Assembly (NCBI RefSeq): GCF_014696675.1
Contig: NZ_JACJQN010000007.1
Coordinates: forward strand, 1-64,000
Length of the DNA stretch: 64,000 nt
Direction of reading: 5' to 3'
From: Phormidium tenue FACHB-1052
GTDB taxonomy: Bacteria; Cyanobacteriota; Cyanobacteriia; Phormidesmidales; Phormidesmidaceae
The position numbers and the translations under genes are program-made. This document shows positions 5,956 through 12,838 of this stretch, one piece after another. The notes below the pieces were generated by a model that was not told the DNA's origin, ran no database searches, and saw nothing but the letters and a program-made list of their open reading frames with translations. How positions within the stretch are numbered: position 1 is the stretch's first letter; every line of letters begins with the position of its first letter.

Positions 5956-6699
5956 CTAGTGGGCTGGGGCCGAGCGCTCTAGCTGCCAAAGACCAAGCGG
6001 GTCGTCTAGATCCGGTGGCGTCCATTGAGGTGGTGTGCCTAGGCTGGCCTCAGTGCCAAACAAAGCCTGCCAGGTGCCCTCCCGATATTCCCAGGCGGTG
6101 GCAGAAAACGCGCTAAAGATCTTCGCCTCCTGCAATGGGTCAGCGGTGGGCGATTTTCCCCTGGAGACGCTTTGTGATTCTCCGGGGGAGACGCTGCGCG
6201 AACGCCATTGATGCACCAAGACGGCCCAGTTGCCCACCCGGAGGGCCTGCCCCTGCTGCTCTGCCCGATCCAGACGCCACACCTGCACAGGGCCAGGGTG
6301 AAGGCGATGCCAGTGCTCAACGAAAGTGTGGCGATCGCCCTCGTCATCTTCACAGGTGCCTTGCTCTAAAAAGTCGTCTGGCCCCAACCAGTGATAGTTG
6401 CTGGTGTCGGGCCACTGGCAGGGGGTAAGGGCAAGGCGATGGTGCCAGGTGCATGTCGGGGGGGCCGCAGACCAGCTAAAAGTTCCGGCAAAGCCCAACA
6501 GATCGGCATCAAAGCGCGATCGCCAATCCATCTCCCGATACCGCTCCGGCGTCAGCCGTCCCGCAAAAGGAGCGCTACGCACATCGGCAAAGTAGGTTTC
6601 AGCCTGGATCCATAGGACAGATTGGCTGGTTTCGATCGGGCCTTGGTCAAACTGGATGGAGCGGCGTTGCCAGACGCCGAGGAAGGGGTTGAGGGGCAT
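5956..6699 (-). CDS. Lipocalin-like conserved protein, possibly HRI1-related
   Basis: This 247-residue protein starts MPLNPFLGVWQRRSIQFDQGP; earlier codons in the open frame come from a repeat-rich leader, so the ATG at 6699 is preferred. The GVWQRRSIQF start, repeated aromatic/beta-strand segments and a second half ending LGLWQLERS suggest a calycin/lipocalin-like barrel. I recall similar bacterial proteins annotated as HRI1-like, but I hold this lightly. About residues 186-202 (RSVSPGESQSVSRGKSP) are encoded by a repeat-like insertion. The gene lies 200 bases downstream of the Rieske gene and could belong to that operon. Its leader is C-rich rather than Shine-Dalgarno-like. Confidence 0.65.
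   Translation of the reverse strand: MPLNPFLGVWQRRSIQFDQGPIETSQSVLWIQAETYFADVRSAPFAGRLTPERYREMDWRSRFDADLLGFAGTFSWSAAPPTCTWHHRLALTPCQWPDTSNYHWLGPDDFLEQGTCEDDEGDRHTFVEHWHRLHPGPVQVWRLDRAEQQGQALRVGNWAVLVHQWRSRSVSPGESQSVSRGKSPTADPLQEAKIFSAFSATAWEYREGTWQALFGTEASLGTPPQWTPPDLDDPLGLWQLERSAPAH
6150..6216. repeat. Small dispersed repeat-like insertion inside a CDS
   Basis: Two nearby copies of a GGAGACGCT(T/G) core, each next to a CCCCTGG or CCGGGGG stem, occur in frame inside the lipocalin-like gene. A related GCGTCTCTGGAGGAGAC core occurs at about 17516-17532. The sequence resembles cyanobacterial small dispersed repeats. It translates to a Ser/Gly-rich linker without breaking the frame. Confidence 0.5.
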
Positions 6700-6738
6700 G
6701 GAGGGGTGATGGGGTAACGGAGTTATGGGGTGGGGGAG

Positions 6739-6798
6739 AATTTTGAAGGTTGAATTTTGAGTTTTGAATGTGCCCAATCAATTCAAAATTTAGAATTA
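6739..6798. repeat. TTTTGAA-type heptamer repeat stem-loop, copy 1
   Basis: Direct TTTTGAA/TTGAATT motifs are followed by an inverted ATTCAAAATT arm. A close relative, also just upstream of a minus-strand start codon after a G-rich stretch, occurs at 55304-55388. This fits the STRR class of cyanobacterial heptamer repeats. Confidence 0.6.
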
Positions 6799-6899: not shown

Positions 6900-8051
6900 C
6901 TAATCAGCCTCACTAAAAGCGGCAAGGGCGTCCCAGATCAGTTGTTGCTGGTGAATGATGCGGGTTTCTAAACCATTTACCGGGCCGGGGGTGTAGGCAC
7001 CGCTAGCGTAGCCCTGCTGCACGCTTTCGGTGAGCACCATGTCTTCTTGCATAAAGGCGTCAAACTCGGCCAGCAGGGTTTCACTGGGGGGGCAAAAATC
7101 GGGGTCACCGTAGAGGTCGAGGGAAACCTGGCAAGACTCAGCGGTGAGCGGCTCGATGTGCAGCCAGGCCAGCAGGCCGTTGGGCAGGCCCAGCAGGTGC
7201 AGGTTGGGATAGATGCCGTAGGTGAAAAATCCCTCGCGGCTGCGGCCCTGGAGCATGGGCAAGATGGAGTTTTCGGCCTGCCAGTCGGCGGTGGTGGGGG
7301 TGTAGAGCAGGTTGACGAAGGCTTCGAGCTGGTGCTGGTAGTGGCGAATGGGGCCTTGTACCGGGTTGAGGGTGGTGCGGTGGGCGATCGCCACATGATA
7401 GTCACACAGCGTGTTGTCGTGGTAGTTCTTCCAGTTGCAGGCGACGGTGTACTGCTTGGCCGCCAGGGGTTGGGTGGCGGGGGTGCGGTGCTGTCCCAGG
7501 TGCTCAGGGATGCTGCCGAGAAACTCCACCAGCGGCGGCGCACTGTCGTCGAAGCAGACGAACATAAAGCCCGACCAGATTTCTATCCGCACGGGTCGCA
7601 GCGCAAACTCCTGCTTCTTAAACGACTCTGAAAACTGATTTTGGGAGGGCACCCCCACCAAATTTCCAGCCAGGTCGTAAACCCAGGCGTGGTAGGGGCA
7701 CACCAGCTTTTGGCAGGGATGAATGCCCGCCTGGGGCGACAAAATTGCGGCCCGGTGGGGGCAGAGGTTGTAAAAGGCCCGCAGATCGCCCTCGTTGTCG
7801 CGCACGATCAGTAGGGGAGCGCCCGCCACTGATTTGGCCCACACCATGCCTGGCTGGAGGCGATCGCCATCGCCCACATAAAGCCAGGTGCGGCGAAAGA
7901 TCGCCCGCTGCTCTATCGGGAGCCATTGAGGATTGGTGTAGTGGTCGGCGGTGAGCAAAAATCGCTCCGGCAGCCCATGGGCATCGGGGGGCACTGGCGA
8001 GGAGATTGGGGGGTTGGTCGTTGACCATTGCAGCGGCAGTCTGGAAACCAT
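6900..8051 (-). CDS. Rieske non-haem iron oxygenase, alpha-subunit type
   Basis: This 383-residue protein has a Rieske [2Fe-2S] domain with ligands C97, H99, C118 and H121 (CPHR ... CPYH). A catalytic SRPBCC domain follows, with mononuclear-iron ligands H219, H224 and, C-terminally, D337 (QEDMVLTESVQQG). Such enzymes hydroxylate or N-demethylate small substrates using O2 and an external reductase; no reductase gene is adjacent. The residue three before the first iron His, normally the Asp or Glu that bridges the two metal centres, is Cys (C216), with Asp at the next position (D217). The start overlaps the stop of the ABC ATPase by one base, indicating translational coupling. The operon is preceded by a guanidine-I riboswitch, so a guanidino or related nitrogen compound is a plausible but unproved substrate. 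Confidence 0.9.
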   Translation of the reverse strand: MVSRLPLQWSTTNPPISSPVPPDAHGLPERFLLTADHYTNPQWLPIEQRAIFRRTWLYVGDGDRLQPGMVWAKSVAGAPLLIVRDNEGDLRAFYNLCPHRAAILSPQAGIHPCQKLVCPYHAWVYDLAGNLVGVPSQNQFSESFKKQEFALRPVRIEIWSGFMFVCFDDSAPPLVEFLGSIPEHLGQHRTPATQPLAAKQYTVACNWKNYHDNTLCDYHVAIAHRTTLNPVQGPIRHYQHQLEAFVNLLYTPTTADWQAENSILPMLQGRSREGFFTYGIYPNLHLLGLPNGLLAWLHIEPLTAESCQVSLDLYGDPDFCPPSETLLAEFDAFMQEDMVLTESVQQGYASGAYTPGPVNGLETRIIHQQQLIWDALAAFSEAD

Positions 8052-8824
8052 CAGCTCACCAACGCGGGCACTGTCTTGCCCCGCAGCAGATCCATGATGC
8101 CTTCGCGGGTGTCTTGGAAGGCGCGATCGCGGCGAATCATGTAGGTGCGATCGCTGGGCAAATCCACAAATACCTCCCGCTGAATGGTGCCGGGGTGGGC
8201 CGTCAGCACATAGATGCGCTGGGAGAGAAACACGGCCTCATCCACGTCGTGGGTAATCATCAAAATGCTGACCCCGGTGCGGTTCCACAGGTCGAGCATA
8301 AACTGCTGCATGGTTTCTTTGGTCTGCACGTCTAGCGCGCCAAAGGGTTCGTCCATCAGCATGATTTTGGGCCGCGAGGCCAGGGTGCGGGCGATCGCTA
8401 CCCGCTGCTTCATGCCGCCCGAGAGCTGCTTGGGCAGCGATCGCGCAAATTTGGTCAGCCCCACCACGTCTAAATAGTAGGAGGCCATTTCTCGCCGCTC
8501 CTTTGGCCCCACGCCCTGGAGTTTGAGGCCAAATTCCACATTTTTCTGCACCGTCATCCAGGGATAGAGCGTGTAGCTCTGGAAGATCATGCCGCGATCG
8601 GAGCCAGGCCCGGTCACCACCTGGCCGTCTACCGTGATCTCCCCCGTCGTGGGCATGTCTAGCCCCGCCACCAGCCGCAGCAGGGTCGATTTGCCGGAGC
8701 CGGAAGCCCCGACGGCGCAGACAAATTCGCCCGTTTCGACGTGCATGTTGATGTCGTCGAGCGCCAGCACCGACCCCTGGCGGGTGTCGAATTGTTTGCT
8801 GAGATTGTTGATTTCTAAGTGCAT
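8051..8824 (-). CDS. ABC transporter ATP-binding protein (NitT/TauT family)
   Basis: This 257-residue cytoplasmic ATPase energises the adjacent permease. Walker A GASGSGKST, the Q-loop, the ABC signature LSGGMKQRVAIART, Walker B LMDEPFGALD and the switch region ILMITHDVDEA are complete. The class (SsuB/TauB/NrtD) typically imports sulfonates, nitrate, pyrimidine precursors or other small nitrogen compounds. The ATG at 8824 starts MHLEINNLSKQF; the open frame upstream runs through repeat-rich leader and is unlikely to be translated. The leader just before this ATG is C-rich and lacks a clear Shine-Dalgarno. The substrate is inferred only from the operon. Confidence 0.95.
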   Translation of the reverse strand: MHLEINNLSKQFDTRQGSVLALDDINMHVETGEFVCAVGASGSGKSTLLRLVAGLDMPTTGEITVDGQVVTGPGSDRGMIFQSYTLYPWMTVQKNVEFGLKLQGVGPKERREMASYYLDVVGLTKFARSLPKQLSGGMKQRVAIARTLASRPKIMLMDEPFGALDVQTKETMQQFMLDLWNRTGVSILMITHDVDEAVFLSQRIYVLTAHPGTIQREVFVDLPSDRTYMIRRDRAFQDTREGIMDLLRGKTVPALVS

Positions 8825-8888
8825 GGTGGGGTGGGGGTAAGGGGTAGGGGGTGGATGGGTAGGGGGTGAACGATTTAATAGGTACGCC

Positions 8889-8910
8889 GTAGGGTGGGCA
8901 CTGCCCACCA
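8889..8910. repeat. Dispersed palindrome TGGGCA-TGCCCA, copy 2
   Basis: This is the second copy of the palindrome at 6806-6827 with one base changed in the centre. It sits in the 264-base gap between the permease and ATPase genes of the same operon, where the transcript would form a hairpin. Confidence 0.7.
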
Positions 8911-8973
8911 AAGCTAGACTGAATCGGATTTAGGATGAATATAGAAAGTTTGATGGGGTGAGATACCCTGCTT

Positions 8974-9006
8974 TGATCCCCCCTGCCCCCCTTTTCAAGG
9001 GGGGTT
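8974..9006. repeat. CCCCCC...GGGGGG hairpin repeat
   Basis: A run of six C at 8986-8991 pairs with six G at 8999-9004 around a TTTTCAA loop, preceded by ATCCCCCCTG. This matches a common interspersed C/G-run hairpin of cyanobacterial genomes. It is inside the riboswitch-controlled operon and could lower expression of the distal ATPase and oxygenase genes. Confidence 0.65.
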
Positions 9007-9088
9007 ATAGAGTGAAACTGAGAACGCGAGAATCTGGAGGGATCTATCTGAGCGATCGCGCACCTCACAAACTGGGGAACGCCATAGA

Positions 9089-9880
9089 TCAATCCACCGC
9101 CCATTTACAGGTGGCTTTCATCAGCCCTCGCAGCGATAAATCTAGGGCAAAGCCAATCACACCGAGAATGATCAGGCAGGCGAAGATTTCGTCGGTGTTG
9201 AAAAACTTTTGGGCCAGCACAATGCGTTTGCCCAGGCCGTTTTCCGCCGCTACCAGCTCCGCTACTACCACCAGGCTCCAGGAGGTGGCAATGTTGATGC
9301 GGAAGGTGTCGATAATGTTGGGCACCACGTAGGGAGTAATCACCTGAAACAGCGCTTGCCGCCGCTGCCCGCCCAGAGTGTAGGTGGTTTCAAGCAGGGC
9401 CTTGGGCACAAACTTCACCGCATCCATAATCATCAAAATGTTGAAGAACACCGTGCCCATGAAGATCAGAGCGATTTTGGGCGCTTCCCCCAGACCCAGG
9501 TAGATCACCAACAGGGGAATGAAGGCCGGGGGCGGCATGTAGCGCACCACGCCAATGATCGGTTCGAGCAGCGATCGCACGCTAGCAAAGGCCCCCATCG
9601 CGATGCCGATGGGCACCGACACCAAGGCCGCCAGCCCAAAACCCACCGTCACCCGCATGATGCTAGCAGCGGTATCTCCCAGCAAAAAGCCATCTGTCCA
9701 GAGCCGACCCAGCGCTTGGGCCACCTGAATCGGCGACGGCAAAAACTTGTCATTCACTAAATTCAGGCTAGCCACCATCCACCAGAGGGCAAAGGGCACC
9801 GCAATGGAGAGCACCATCAGCACCGTGCCCATGGATTTAGGAATGTCGTCGGCCAGTCGCCAAAAAACGCTGGGCTTCAT
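9089..9880 (-). CDS. ABC transporter permease (NitT/TauT family)
   Basis: This 263-residue inner-membrane permease has about six transmembrane segments. The first is VLMVLSIAVPFALWWMVASL, and there is a typical LPSPIQVAQALGRLW segment and a cytoplasmic EAA loop around ALLETTYTLGGQRRQALFQVITPYVVPNI that contacts the ATPase. The ATG at 9880 (MKPSVFWRLADD) gives normal family length. The frame stays open to a TTG at 10012, four bases before the binding-protein stop, and would add a hydrophobic but atypical N terminus. It is third in the guanidine-riboswitch operon. Confidence 0.92.
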   Translation of the reverse strand: MKPSVFWRLADDIPKSMGTVLMVLSIAVPFALWWMVASLNLVNDKFLPSPIQVAQALGRLWTDGFLLGDTAASIMRVTVGFGLAALVSVPIGIAMGAFASVRSLLEPIIGVVRYMPPPAFIPLLVIYLGLGEAPKIALIFMGTVFFNILMIMDAVKFVPKALLETTYTLGGQRRQALFQVITPYVVPNIIDTFRINIATSWSLVVVAELVAAENGLGKRIVLAQKFFNTDEIFACLIILGVIGFALDLSLRGLMKATCKWAVD

Positions 9881-10015
9881 GCCCTGGGGGGCGGTGGGCG
9901 CGGTGGAAAAGGAAGGGGAATCAGGAGTCACAGGGATTAGCCCAAACGTACAACAAACCTGTAAAACGAGAACCCCCATCATCCACAAAACGGCGATGGG
10001 GGCGGTTATCAACGG

Positions 10016-11059
10016 CTACTGATTGGCGGTGTAGGCCTTAACAAATTGGTCATTGAGAATGGCCTCTAGGTCAGGCGCTTCGGGGATAAACTGAGTCTCC
10101 ACCATGAATTCAGCCATTTTTTGAGCGGCGTAGGGCATGTACTTCATGTCGTCACCGCCCGCGCTAAAGGCTTCTAGGTTTTCGTCCAGGGTGAAGATTT
10201 TGGTGCCCTCGGTGTATTTCTCAAACTCGGTGTCGCTGACACTGGCTCGCTTCGCCATGATCTCGTTGGCCCGCTCAGGGTTTTCCTCAATAAAGGCCAG
10301 AATGTCGAACCAGGTATTGACCAAGGCCTGCACTTGGTCGGGGCGGCTATCGATCAGCTTTTGGCTGACCACCAGCAGGTCAGGAATCGCGCCAGGGTAA
10401 TCCTCCGATGAAACCAACTCTTGGCTGCCCTCGCGAGACAGCGCCGTTTCCCAGAAGGGTACCCAGCCCGCAAAGCCATCTACCTGACCGGCAGCAAAGG
10501 CCGTGGCCGCAGCCCCAGTCTCTAGATTTTTGATGTCTACGTCATCGCGGGTCAGCCCCGCATCTTTGAGGGCCAGGCTGAGCAAAAAGTCGCCCACTAC
10601 ACCTTCTTCTAGGGCAACGGTTTTGCCCGCCAGATCGGCGACGGTGTTGATGCCCTCGGCCCCAATCACCTTGTCGTTACCGGCGGAGTTGTCGTTGACC
10701 AGCACGGCCACCATGCCGTTGACGGCATCCCCCGCAAAGGAAATGGTGTCGTTGAGAGTCTGGCTGTTGGCATCGAGCTGCCCAGCGGCGAGGGCCTGCA
10801 TCGACTCTAGGTAGCCGTCAAACCAGATCAGCTCGACGTTGGCCCCATTCTTTTCGAAAAGGCCCTCTTCTGCGGCGATTGCCCAGGGCCACCAGCCTGC
10901 CCAGCTGCTGTAGCCGAGTTTCACCGGCTCGCCAGTCGTAGCGCTCGCGGGCGCATCGGCAGGGGCATCGGCCTGGGGCGTACTTTGGGCGCAGCTAACG
11001 GTGATCAACAAACTGCAAAAAAAGGCAACCAGCGTGGGTAAAAAGGTACGTCGTTGCAT
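10016..11059 (-). CDS. ABC transporter substrate-binding lipoprotein (NMT1/SsuA-like)
   Basis: This is a 347-residue periplasmic binding protein. A basic N terminus (MQRRTF), a hydrophobic stretch and a lipobox-like TVSC at about residues 21-24 indicate export as a lipoprotein, followed by an Ala/Pro/Asp-rich linker. The mature fold begins VKLGYSSWAGWWPWAIAAEEGLFEKNG, typical of the NitT/TauT binding-protein family. DGYLESMQALAAGQLDANSQTLND and GKTVALEEGVVGDFLL are domain hallmarks. It is encoded just after the glutamine synthetase-like gene. The substrate may be guanidine or a derivative, inferred from the upstream riboswitch only. Confidence 0.92.
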   Translation of the reverse strand: MQRRTFLPTLVAFFCSLLITVSCAQSTPQADAPADAPASATTGEPVKLGYSSWAGWWPWAIAAEEGLFEKNGANVELIWFDGYLESMQALAAGQLDANSQTLNDTISFAGDAVNGMVAVLVNDNSAGNDKVIGAEGINTVADLAGKTVALEEGVVGDFLLSLALKDAGLTRDDVDIKNLETGAAATAFAAGQVDGFAGWVPFWETALSREGSQELVSSEDYPGAIPDLLVVSQKLIDSRPDQVQALVNTWFDILAFIEENPERANEIMAKRASVSDTEFEKYTEGTKIFTLDENLEAFSAGGDDMKYMPYAAQKMAEFMVETQFIPEAPDLEAILNDQFVKAYTANQ

Positions 11060-11151
11060 AGCTGTGGGTCTTGGTCTCAAAAACTACAGGAAAAGCTGTG
11101 GAAAACGCTGTGGAAAAAACTGACGCCGCTGGGAATGGTGCGGCGCGATCG

Positions 11152-12513
11152 CTAGAAAAACTTGAGATACCGCTTAATTTCCCAATCGGAAATGTGGGTG
11201 TGGTACTCCTCCCATTCCCGGCGGCGAAAGTCGATGTAGGTCTGGTACATCAGTGGCCCCATCACCGCCTGGCTTAGGGAATCAGCCTCAAAGGCGTCGA
11301 TCGCCTCTTGCAGCGTGCGGGGCAGCATATCGATGCCCATCGTCTTCAGGTCACTCAGGGAATAGTTGTACATGTTTTCGGTGTGGGGGTCGCCGGGGTC
11401 TAGCCCCTCGGCAATGCCCTCTAGCCCAGCGGCGAGAATCATCGCGGCCCCCAGGTAGGGGTTGGTGGCAATATCGGCGGCGCGGCACTCGACCCGCCCC
11501 CCCGCCAGGGGAATGCGCAGCATGTTAGTGCGGTTGTTGTTGCCGTAGCAGATATAGACCGGGGCCCAGGTAAAGCCCGACATGCTGCCCTGGCGCAGCA
11601 GCCGCTTGTAGCTGTTGACCGTGGGGCAGGTGACGGCGCAGATGGCCTTGGCGTGACGCAGCACCCCAGCAATAAACTGGTAGCCCAGCTTCGACAGCTT
11701 GCAGTCGCGTGGGTCATCCGGGTCTTCAAACAGGTTTTGCCCGGTGTTGATGTCGGCCAGCGACATGTTGTAGTGGGCACCGCTGCCGGTGCGATCGCCA
11801 AAGGGCTTGGGCATAAAGCTGGCAAAGTAGCCGTGCTTGCGGGCGATCTCCTTCACCATCAGCCGAAAGAAGGTGAGGCGATCGGCCATGGTCAGGGCAT
11901 CGCTGTAGGCAAAGTCAGTTTCAAACTGACCGTTGGCGTCTTCGTGGTCAAAGGAGTAGACATCCCAACCCAGATCGTTCATGTACTCGACCAGCTCGCT
12001 CAGCCAGGGGGTGTTATCGAGCAGGCTGGGCAGGTCGTAGCAGGGCTTAGCCAAGGTGTCGCGATCGCTCACCGGCCCAAAGCTCCCGTCGGGGTGCTCT
12101 TTGAGCATGAAAAACTCGGTCTCAATGCCCAGGTTAAAGGAAAACCCCATCGCCGCCGCCTTAGCCAGCATCTGCTTGAGAATGGTGCGGCAGCAGGCCT
12201 CAAAGGGTTGCCCCTTCAGATAAAGATCGCTGGCAAACCAGGCCACCTCGGGCTTCCAGGGCAGCACCGTAGCCGAGGCCGGGTCGGGCATCGCCGCCAC
12301 CTCCTCATCGCTAATCTCTTGGGGCACCCCGTCGAGGGCCGCGCCGGTAAACAGCTCTGAACCCGCCATCATTTGGCCCAGGTGAGCCAGGGGTACCATT
12401 TTGGCCTTGCCCATGCCGTGGATATCCACATAGCTGGCCAGGGCGTACTTGACACCTTTATCCTCCAGGGAGGATTTCAGCGCCTCGATCTCAGGAGCTA
12501 GCGAGTGGGCCAT
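11152..12513 (-). CDS. Glutamine synthetase-like ligase, type III/GlnT family
   Basis: This 453-residue GS-fold enzyme is the first gene of the riboswitch operon. The N terminus (GVKYALASYVDIHGMGKAKMVP) is the beta-grasp region of the GlnT branch. The catalytic part shows FNLGIETEFFML, SFDHEDANGQFE, GSGAHYNMSL, an NSYKRLL segment and RIPLAGGRVECRAADIATNPYLG, so the metal- and glutamate-binding residues look intact. The GlnT branch includes ammonia ligases and gamma-glutamyl-amine ligases, so the acceptor could be ammonia, an amine or a guanidino compound. The ATG at 12513 is preferred; the open frame reaches 12570 inside the leader. Expression is likely to need guanidine to prevent termination upstream, under NtcA control. 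Confidence 0.9.
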   Translation of the reverse strand: MAHSLAPEIEALKSSLEDKGVKYALASYVDIHGMGKAKMVPLAHLGQMMAGSELFTGAALDGVPQEISDEEVAAMPDPASATVLPWKPEVAWFASDLYLKGQPFEACCRTILKQMLAKAAAMGFSFNLGIETEFFMLKEHPDGSFGPVSDRDTLAKPCYDLPSLLDNTPWLSELVEYMNDLGWDVYSFDHEDANGQFETDFAYSDALTMADRLTFFRLMVKEIARKHGYFASFMPKPFGDRTGSGAHYNMSLADINTGQNLFEDPDDPRDCKLSKLGYQFIAGVLRHAKAICAVTCPTVNSYKRLLRQGSMSGFTWAPVYICYGNNNRTNMLRIPLAGGRVECRAADIATNPYLGAAMILAAGLEGIAEGLDPGDPHTENMYNYSLSDLKTMGIDMLPRTLQEAIDAFEADSLSQAVMGPLMYQTYIDFRRREWEEYHTHISDWEIKRYLKFF

Positions 12514-12570
12514 AGGTGAATAGGGATAGATAAGCGGTAAGGATTGGGCGTTTCTTGGGAAAAACGTCAT

Positions 12571-12625
12571 AAAAAACGACAGCCCGAGAGAATGGCAAAG
12601 CAGCGCTTCGCTATCCTCCCGGGCT
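12571..12625 (-). terminator. Riboswitch expression platform: intrinsic terminator
   Basis: On the minus strand AGCCCGGGAG (12625-12616), the 3' conserved segment of the aptamer, can pair with CTCTCGGGCT (12590-12581) over 10 base pairs with one G-U. GTCG and a run of six T (12576-12571) follow. Aptamer and terminator share the same bases and are mutually exclusive, so ligand binding should allow read-through. Confidence 0.88.
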
Positions 12626-12750
12626 TTTATCCCGCCGTGTACCAGATACCGTGAGCGCTGCTATCAAAGCAGGGCCAGTAACTATCTGGCGGTTTCTCTC
12701 GGACCAGACGCCCTAACCGCAGATGCGGCAAGCCGGAACCCTAGAAACCG
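12611..12750 (-). ncRNA. Guanidine-I riboswitch (ykkC class)
   Basis: All conserved blocks of the ykkC/guanidine-I aptamer appear in order on the minus strand. CTAGGGTTCCG is at 12742-12732, CTGGTCCGAGAG is at about 12707-12695, and ACACGGCGGGATAAAAGCCC with GGGAG runs from about 12641 to 12616. P1 is CGGTTTCT (12750-12743) paired with AGAAACCG (12697-12690), and the next stem is CCAGATA paired with TATCTGG. The blocks match the Bacillus subtilis ykkC leader as I recall it nearly base for base. That favours the guanidine class over the ppGpp and PRPP variants. It leads into the glutamine synthetase-like gene. Confidence 0.93.
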
Positions 12751-12838
12751 ATTGGCTATTAAAACTAGTTGAGTGATTGGTGACTTGAGCTGACGATTGA
12801 TGCACTAATAGGCTTAGCAATTGCTCAAACATTAGAAA

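What the first reader, a model, noticed from the sequence alone, without database searches (positions are those of the whole stretch)
6900..12750. Guanidine-sensing operon encoding a GS-like ligase, an ABC importer and a Rieske oxygenase
A near-consensus guanidine-I riboswitch stands before five consecutive minus-strand genes. None is a guanidine hydrolase (GdmH), guanidine carboxylase or SMR exporter, the genes I associate with this riboswitch. Known facts: the ykkC class I aptamer binds guanidine; GlnT-like GS proteins can ligate amines; Rieske oxygenases N-dealkylate or hydroxylate. Inference: the operon imports guanidine or a methylated/alkyl guanidine, with the oxygenase trimming the substrate and the ligase gamma-glutamylating the product. 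That would be an alternative assimilation route.
Basis: partly seen in the sequence, partly recalled or inferred. Interest (0 to 1): 0.93.

Follow-up and report, generated by a model that had tools for sequence, protein, structure and literature searches.

The report
Split guanidine-uptake operon with accessory enzymes
A cyanobacterium appears to switch on, in response to guanidine, an importer together with two unassigned enzymes (an amine-glutamate ligase and an iron-sulfur oxygenase) that recur beside guanidine-degrading genes in many relatives, pointing to an unexplored branch of guanidine metabolism.

Summary
A guanidine-I aptamer (80 bits, cut-off 63) with a strong terminator precedes five minus-strand genes: GS-like ligase, binding protein, permease, ATPase, Rieske oxygenase. 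The 'route without a hydrolase' reading does not hold: the same genome carries GdmH-HypA-HypB under a second guanidine-I riboswitch, and relatives have one fused operon, riboswitch-GdmH-HypA-GS-HypB-SBP-PERM-ATP, some with the Rieske gene. The window operon is the importer half of a split guanidine-hydrolase regulon plus two accessory enzymes. In 388 cyanobacterial genomes, 80 of 85 ligase carriers and 50 of 53 oxygenase carriers have a guanidine-I riboswitch or GdmH. The oxygenase also sits beside guanidine-carboxylase genes and often without the ligase, so it most likely produces guanidine from a substituted guanidine. The ligase is nearest to glutamate-methylamine ligase, lacks the ammonia-binding residues, and its clade shares two pocket changes (Gln to Ser, Asn to Asp). 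That it ligates guanidine or a related amine is inferred, not shown. The oxygenase in marine Synechococcus guanidinase clusters is already in print; I found no report of the ligase in a partial library.

The parts
12614..12755 (-). Guanidine-I (ykkC class I) riboswitch aptamer
   Evidence: cmscan RF00442, 80 bits vs 63 gathering, full length; second match in the genome on C6
12571..12625 (-). Intrinsic-terminator expression platform overlapping the aptamer 3' strand (ON switch expected)
   Evidence: 13-pair outer stem then U6, -32.6 kcal/mol, z -5.3, 0 of 200 shuffles as stable; sequence read
11152..12513 (-). GS-like gamma-glutamyl amine ligase (GlnT/GmaS family); the ORF opens at 12570, right after the U-run, so the ATG at 12513 is the likely start
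   Evidence: TIGR03105 592 bits vs 470; best PDB chain glutamate--methylamine ligase 9qur, 436 bits; pocket residues
10016..11080 (-). Periplasmic substrate-binding protein, SsuA/NMT1 type; likely start ATG 11059
   Evidence: TIGR01728 276 bits vs 163.5; 47-77% identical to the SBPs in fetched loci with GdmH outside the window's genus
9089..10012 (-). ABC importer permease
   Evidence: PF00528; nearest NCBIfam models taurine/nitrate type, below cut-offs; 52-69% in loci with GdmH
8051..8824 (-). ABC importer ATPase; start at M of MHLEINN
   Evidence: PF00005; ORF runs to 8911
6900..8051 (-). Rieske non-heme iron oxygenase, alpha subunit only
   Evidence: PF00355 and PF00848; C97-H99, C118-H121, H219, H224, D337 invariant in 19 aligned sequences; AF2 model pLDDT 88.5, nearest folds CntA and stachydrine demethylase

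Best explanation
The window holds one half of a split guanidine-assimilation regulon. Guanidine binding to the class I aptamer prevents the terminator and turns the operon on (platform shown in sequence; binding inferred). SBP-PERM-ATP import guanidine and possibly substituted guanidines (inferred from homology to the importer genes of GdmH operons). GdmH with HypA and HypB, at the second riboswitch locus on contig C6, hydrolyses guanidine to urea and ammonia (inferred from close homology to the solved enzyme). The Rieske oxygenase N-dealkylates a substituted guanidine, most likely methylguanidine, to guanidine, a different-fold counterpart of MgdH (inferred). The GS-like protein is not an ammonia-assimilating glutamine synthetase; it ligates glutamate to a cationic amine of this pathway, most likely guanidine or an alkylguanidine, for detoxification or storage (inferred, weakest step). 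Step likelihoods: split guanidine regulon 0.9; oxygenase acting upstream of guanidine 0.55; ligase acting on a guanidino compound 0.4.
For: Two guanidine-I matches in the genome. The C6 locus reads riboswitch-GdmH-HypA-HypB; its hydrolase matches 7esr/7oi1 at 833 bits. Fused operons in same-family and distant relatives: L052-L057 and L059 with riboswitch-GdmH-HypA-GS-HypB-SBP-PERM-ATP; L119-L123 and L125 with GdmH, HypA, HypB, GS, SBP, PERM, ATP and Rieske. Of 50 riboswitches mapped in L131-L180, 19 head GdmH-HypA-HypB-SBP-PERM-ATP, 7 GdmH-HypA-HypB alone and 5 SBP-PERM-ATP alone, so the split is a recurrent arrangement. Same 388 genomes: ligase with riboswitch 75 of 85 (OR 10), with riboswitch or GdmH 80 of 85; oxygenase 45 of 53 and 50 of 53. 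Oxygenase beside carboxyguanidine deiminase/guanidine carboxylase genes in L191-L193, L067, L108, and with degradation genes but no ligase nearby in 13 of 46 oxygenase loci. Window-type and f20-type oxygenases fall in one clade, 100/99. Nearest folds are N-dealkylating Rieske monooxygenases. Ligase: Ser at RhGmaS Q175 in 88 of 88 and Asp at N188 in 87 of 88 orthologues, Gln and Asn in 18 of 18 paralogues.
Against: No ligand, substrate or transcript was measured, and a 2025 paper says no study has addressed guanidine importers (PMC12508155, section 10). 38 of 89 ligase genes mapped have no riboswitch, GdmH or deiminase/carboxylase gene within 8 kb (some on short contigs); 13 of these have GATase and mostly Fe-ADH/ALDH genes beside them and no sign of guanidine, yet keep the same pocket, so the pocket is not proof of guanidine. 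6 of 46 oxygenase loci have neither guanidine genes nor this importer nearby (L187, L188, L190, L195, L196, L197). The one class I aptamer tested in PMC12508155 did not bind methylguanidine up to 1 mM, so an oxygenase substrate would not itself induce the operon. The oxygenase has Cys216 where CntA has Glu at its bridging position (alignment; the role of that Glu is recalled), and no reductase gene lies in the operon. Fisher tests ignore shared ancestry.
Confidence: 0.5

Rival explanations
1. The ligase is a plain glutamine synthetase that captures the ammonia released by GdmH and urease; the oxygenase is a separate accessory.
For: NCBIfam names the family type III glutamate--ammonia ligase; GdmH releases ammonia, and the ligase gene lies among gdmH, hypA and hypB in fused operons.
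Against: The flap Glu position is Trp and the Asp50 position Thr (in 86 and 85 of 88 orthologues); GmaS likewise lacks both ammonia-site residues (PMC7948447 passages). The closest solved chain is a glutamate--methylamine ligase, 436 bits against 271 for the best chain named glutamine synthetase.
Confidence: 0.2
2. Ligase and oxygenase act in series as in aniline or 1-naphthylamine degradation: the ligase gamma-glutamylates the guanidino compound and the Rieske enzyme oxidises the conjugate.
For: Direct precedent for GS-like plus Rieske pairs in which the oxygenase needs the glutamylated amine (PMC11335346 passages). Both genes lie together in the window operon and in 21 of 46 oxygenase loci.
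Against: 13 of 46 oxygenase loci have guanidine-degradation genes but no ligase nearby, and all 7 oxygenase-bearing genomes of that kind that I searched whole lack a ligase orthologue (10 genomes). Ligase operons L052-L057 and L059 show no oxygenase. No small subunit, reductase or glutamyl hydrolase gene in the window operon.
Confidence: 0.12
3. One reading: oxygenase then ligase replaces guanidine hydrolase.
For: No hydrolase in the operon itself.
Against: GdmH-HypA-HypB under its own guanidine-I riboswitch in the same genome; fused GdmH operons in relatives.
Confidence: 0.06
4. The ligase is a true methylamine (GmaS-type) ligase disposing of methylamine from methylated guanidines, and the oxygenase does an unrelated oxidation.
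For: Family and catalytic residues match GmaS; a second cluster type pairs the ligase with creatininase-family and isochorismatase-family genes.
Against: Two residues that line the proposed methylamine pocket are replaced in nearly every orthologue. No methylamine source is evident: a comammox guanidinase made no urea from the other guanidino compounds tested (PMC11410670 passage, which prints 'methylguanine').
Confidence: 0.15

Closest known systems
Cyanobacterial GdmH operon (Synechocystis sll1077 with hypA, hypB, sll1080-1082; PMC8390497 passages)
   Same: Guanidine-I control, SsuA-type importer, GdmH and Ni chaperones present in the genome
   Different: Here split into two riboswitch loci, with added GS-like ligase and Rieske oxygenase
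Marine Synechococcus guanidinase cluster with a Rieske Fe-S protein (PMC10119275 passages)
   Same: By description the same layout: ykkC riboswitch, guanidinase, hypA/B, TauABC-like importer, Rieske gene. I take the unnamed f20 genomes (L119-L123, L125, L169, L174, L180, L198, L199) to be of this kind
   Different: The paper gives no substrate and, in the passages I saw, no ligase; f20 oxygenases are 31-36% identical to the window's
MgdH/MgdL methylguanidine demethylation in Vreelandella (PMC12508155, abstract and sections 6 and 10 read)
   Same: Oxygenase inside a guanidine-riboswitch operon feeding guanidine degradation
   Different: MgdH is a 2-oxoglutarate dioxygenase; here Rieske; no MgdL counterpart was sought
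GmaS / glutamate--methylamine ligase (PDB 9qur, 7cql; PMC7948447 passages)
   Same: Family; Asp177, Glu186, Arg312; Trp300; no ammonia-site Asp
   Different: Q175 to Ser and N188 to Asp in the amine pocket
AtdA/NpaA aniline and 1-naphthylamine systems (PMC11335346 passages)
   Same: GS-like ligase plus Rieske oxygenase in one cluster
   Different: No small subunit, reductase or amidotransferase; the two genes are separable in guanidine regulons
Carnitine monooxygenase CntA and stachydrine demethylase
   Same: Closest folds of the oxygenase; oxidise carbon next to nitrogen
   Different: About 26% and 22% identity; bridging Glu of CntA replaced by Cys

Membership tests
Guanidine-I riboswitch (RF00442) | Covariance-model score over gathering cut-off | tested here: met
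   80 vs 63 bits
Guanidine-I riboswitch (RF00442) | Terminator overlapping the aptamer 3' strand | tested here: met
   Stem and U-run, by sequence and folding only
Guanidine-I riboswitch (RF00442) | Binds guanidine | not testable with these tools
   Needs in-line probing
GdmH guanidine-hydrolase operon | GdmH and Ni chaperones in the same transcription unit | tested here: not met
   Absent from the window operon; present on C6 under its own riboswitch
GdmH guanidine-hydrolase operon | SsuA-type SBP, permease and ATPase homologous to those of GdmH operons | tested here: met
   Outside the genus, in loci with GdmH: SBP 47-77%, PERM 52-69%, ATP about 49-77% (one unrelated 27% ATPase in L150 left out)
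Type III GS / GlnT-GmaS (TIGR03105) | Score over curated cut-off | tested here: met
   591.9 vs 469.6 bits
GmaS methylamine ligase | Catalytic Asp177, Glu186, Arg312; Trp in place of flap Glu | tested here: met
   residue roles from PMC7948447
GmaS methylamine ligase | Methylamine pocket Gln175 and Asn188 | tested here: not met
   Ser and Asp in the window protein
Type I glutamine synthetase | Ammonium-site Asp50 and flap Glu; TIGR00653 cut-off | tested here: not met
   Thr and Trp; 343.5 vs 429.15 bits
Rieske oxygenase alpha subunit | Rieske CxH/CxxH plus 2-His-1-carboxylate iron site | tested here: met
   C97-H99, C118-H121, H219, H224, D337 invariant in alignment A1
Glycine betaine monooxygenase GbcA | NF058607 equivalog cut-off | tested here: not met
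   119 vs 670 bits
Aniline-dioxygenase-type system | Alpha and beta subunits, reductase, GS-like ligase, amidotransferase | tested here: not met
   Only ligase and alpha subunit found in the operon
Methylguanidine hydroxylase (function of MgdH) | Hydroxylates methylguanidine, leading to guanidine and formaldehyde | not testable with these tools
   Needs enzyme assay

The most novel reading that the evidence does not exclude
The GS-like clade is a gamma-glutamylguanidine (or gamma-glutamyl-alkylguanidine) synthetase, a third biochemical fate of guanidine besides hydrolysis and carboxylation, and the Rieske family is an alkylguanidine N-dealkylase. Cyanobacteria would then hold a modular, guanidine-switched pathway for substituted guanidines.
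Probability: 0.3. Interest if true: 0.85.

Novelty: new variant of a known kind. Interest (0 to 1): 0.62.

Why it matters
The natural origin of guanidine, and the role of methylated guanidines, are stated as open in the 2025 review (PMC12186494, section 6) and the MgdH paper (PMC12508155, section 10). An oxygenase that follows guanidine-degradation genes whichever degradation route is present, and a ligase clade with a changed amine pocket under the same riboswitch, give two concrete enzymes to test for producing or conjugating guanidine in photosynthetic bacteria.

Tried and rejected
Rejected: 'no hydrolase, hence a new assimilation route' (GdmH on C6). Rejected as leading idea: plain glutamine synthetase (ammonia-site residues absent). 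Rejected as leading idea: obligate ligase-then-oxygenase series (separable genes).

Led nowhere: structure of the binding protein (pLDDT 54.8, not used). No binding-pocket analysis of the oxygenase model was made, only a fold search. I built no covariance model of my own: in the test alignment 4 of 19 rows were on the wrong strand, so I mapped riboswitches by a pattern with mismatches, which missed 1 of 50 known riboswitch-site loci (L168); six fetched loci were rechecked with Rfam and all six have a guanidine-I match. The promoter/terminator scan did not report the riboswitch terminator. At C6 the hairpin overlapping the aptamer 3' strand is strong (-47.1 kcal/mol) but has no clear U-run. L276 (Lysinibacillus) has a riboswitch about 8 kb from a Rieske gene on the other strand; I took it as unrelated. 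Not held in the library: the papers asked for (2022 GdmH paper, 2017 guanidine-I paper, 2025 PNAS paper on cyanobacterial guanidine assimilation); of the last I saw only a reference-list entry, and it may bear on the importer. The statement that I found no report of the ligase rests on searches; some searches listed only part of what they matched, and I opened few of the papers listed.

Rows dropped; the ligase set is the 85 of 175 matching genomes with identity of at least 56% (the others have only paralogues, 47% or less in the part listed); the oxygenase set is the 53 of 64 matching genomes with at least 42% identity or in the f20 family (11 with 30-34% left out); 107 rows scored; L119 was read from a wrong ORF and is left out (88 orthologues with the window's, 18 paralogues). 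G555's ligase is cut by a contig end and not counted. A first count of 56 of 89 ligase genes near guanidine markers included five that rested on 32-33% matches to the deiminase; the strict count is 51 of 89. Likewise 41 of 46 oxygenase loci became 40 of 46. The 50 riboswitches are my choice from about 70 class places.
Full report
OBSERVATION. At gathering threshold the window has a single Rfam match, a full-length guanidine-I aptamer at 12755-12614 minus, 80 bits against 63. The aptamer's 3' strand can pair into a hairpin with a 13-pair outer stem that ends in UUUUUU (12625-12571; -32.6 kcal/mol, 0 of 200 shuffles as stable), as expected of a switch that terminates without ligand. The ORF listed from 12570 would start right after the U-run, so the ligase most likely starts at the ATG at 12513. 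Five minus-strand genes follow: GS-like ligase, SsuA/NMT1 binding protein, permease, ATPase, Rieske oxygenase.

THE REST OF THE GENOME. The genome (5.82 Mb, 36 contigs, 99.99% complete) has two guanidine-I matches. The other, on C6, heads an arginase-family gene followed by HypA and HypB. A strong hairpin overlaps that aptamer's 3' strand too, without a clear U-run. The hydrolase matches 7esr/7oi1 at 833 bits (that these entries are Synechocystis GdmH is recalled, the depositors' name being 'probable agmatinase 2'). So the genome has the known hydrolase, under the same kind of control.

RELATIVES. Guanidine-I matches occur in 121 of 386 genomes of the phylum sample and 205 of 388 of the class sample. 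The ligase gave matches in 175 of 388 class genomes, of which 85 carry an orthologue of at least 56% identity. I fetched neighbourhoods of 90 ligase places (one, L130, a 46% paralogue), 50 riboswitch places and 20 oxygenase places and mapped them. Same-genus genomes carry riboswitch-GS-SBP-PERM-ATP-RO (L041-L051; L050 truncated). Named relatives with this layout are Tildeniella torsiva, Nodosilinea sp. FACHB-131, N. nodulosa PCC 7104, Leptolyngbya sp. ULC186bin1 and filamentous cyanobacterium CCT1 (L201-L203, L205, L206). In other genera of the family the order is riboswitch-GdmH-HypA-GS-HypB-SBP-PERM-ATP (L052-L057, L059; HypB of L055). Distant f20 genomes have riboswitch-GdmH-HypA-HypB-GS-SBP-PERM-ATP-Rieske (L119-L123, L125; HypA of L122). 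Of 50 riboswitches mapped in L131-L180, 19 head GdmH-HypA-HypB-SBP-PERM-ATP, 7 GdmH-HypA-HypB alone, 5 SBP-PERM-ATP alone; 7 have the oxygenase downstream. A split into hydrolase and importer units is therefore recurrent. One genome of the window's genus (L183) keeps GdmH-HypA-HypB-SBP-PERM-ATP-Rieske together without the ligase.

CO-OCCURRENCE. In the same 388 genomes (table): ligase and riboswitch together in 75 of 85 ligase genomes (odds ratio 10, p 1.6e-14), ligase with riboswitch or GdmH 80 of 85 (18.4); oxygenase and riboswitch 45 of 53 (6.2), with riboswitch or GdmH 50 of 53 (16). The three oxygenase exceptions are 68-70% complete genomes. Of the five ligase exceptions three are 72-83% complete, and one of the other two (G439) has deiminase and carboxylase genes beside the ligase (L084). 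Conversely 130 of 205 riboswitch genomes have no ligase and 160 of 205 no oxygenase, so these are optional modules. Fisher tests ignore phylogeny. Locally, 51 of 89 ligase genes have a riboswitch, GdmH (60% or more) or deiminase/carboxylase gene (50% or more) within 8 kb, and 38 do not; a riboswitch lies upstream on the same strand within 9 kb in 37. For the oxygenase, 33 of 46 loci have such a marker, 40 of 46 a marker or this importer, and 6 have neither.

THE OXYGENASE. It has the Rieske and mononuclear-iron motifs, invariant in 19 aligned sequences. Its AF2 model (pLDDT 88.5) is nearest to carnitine monooxygenase and stachydrine demethylase, which take the first 17 places of the PDB list as repeated chains of the two enzymes; both oxidise carbon next to nitrogen. 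Window-type and f20-type enzymes fall in one clade (100/99, midpoint root, long branches flagged). The gene accompanies GdmH operons, and also guanidine-carboxylase clusters (L191-L193, and divergent in L067 and L108). Thirteen of 46 loci have degradation genes and no ligase nearby, and the 7 such genomes that I searched whole (G054, G121, G368, G139, G205, G288, G378, among 10 searched) have no ligase orthologue (two have a 41% paralogue). A gene that follows guanidine degradation whichever route is used, and without the ligase, is best explained as producing guanidine. MgdH in Vreelandella does that to methylguanidine with another fold (PMC12508155, abstract and sections 6 and 10). The marine Synechococcus Rieske gene in this cluster is already in print, without function (PMC10119275, passages). 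Against: Cys216 replaces the CntA bridging Glu, there is no reductase gene in the operon, and six loci lack guanidine genes.

THE LIGASE. It scores above the type III cut-off. Its closest solved chains are glutamate--methylamine ligase 9qur (436 bits) and 7cql (357; taken to be RhGmaS, whose residue pattern fits), ahead of chains named glutamine synthetase (271). By the residue roles in PMC7948447 (passages), it keeps Asp177, Glu186 and Arg312, has Trp at the flap position and Thr at the Asp50 position, so it is not built like an ammonia ligase. In 88 orthologues pocket residue Gln175 is Ser in 88 and Asn188 is Asp in 87; in 18 paralogues they are Gln and Asn in all 18. An extra carboxylate and a smaller side chain would suit a larger cation such as guanidinium; this is inference. 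One branch of the clade (15 rows, 13 with GATase or Fe-ADH genes beside them, support 100) also has an ALDH gene and a second GS in most loci and no riboswitch nearby, yet the same pocket. So either that branch changed partners or the substrate is an amine common to both settings.

VERDICT. The operon is the importer half of a split guanidine-hydrolase regulon with two recurrent, unassigned accessory enzymes. Their reactions are inferred, not shown.

Noticed in passing
L256 (Acidobacteriota REEB343) 7521-12120: Guanidine-I riboswitch (83 bits) followed by an arginase-family gene, a Rieske oxygenase, a metallo-beta-lactamase-fold protein and a GdmH-like gene (70%): a Rieske enzyme in a guanidine operon outside cyanobacteria.
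   Followed up: partly
L071, L073, L077, L080, L087: A second riboswitch-linked cluster: another ABC importer with the same ligase, a metallo-beta-lactamase-fold protein, a creatininase-family protein and an isochorismatase-family protein (the L063 one nearest to biuret amidohydrolase, below cut-off); candidate pathway for a larger guanidino compound.
   Followed up: partly
L070, L078, L081: f5-family loci with two further Rieske oxygenases (about 30% to the window's) flanking a creatininase-family gene, beside the ligase.
   Followed up: no
L061, L062, L067, L108: A MetX/esterase-like alpha/beta hydrolase lies next to the oxygenase in two lineages.
   Followed up: no
L142 (G170:C1) 1001-2725: A guanidine-I riboswitch stands before a sodium:solute symporter gene, a possible alternative guanidine carrier.
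   Followed up: no
window 5956-6777 minus: ORF downstream of the oxygenase with a borderline match to HRI1 (27.3 vs 27.0 bits).
   Followed up: no
L074 2442-4607: One open frame fuses the metallo-beta-lactamase-fold protein to the ligase (721 aa).
   Followed up: no
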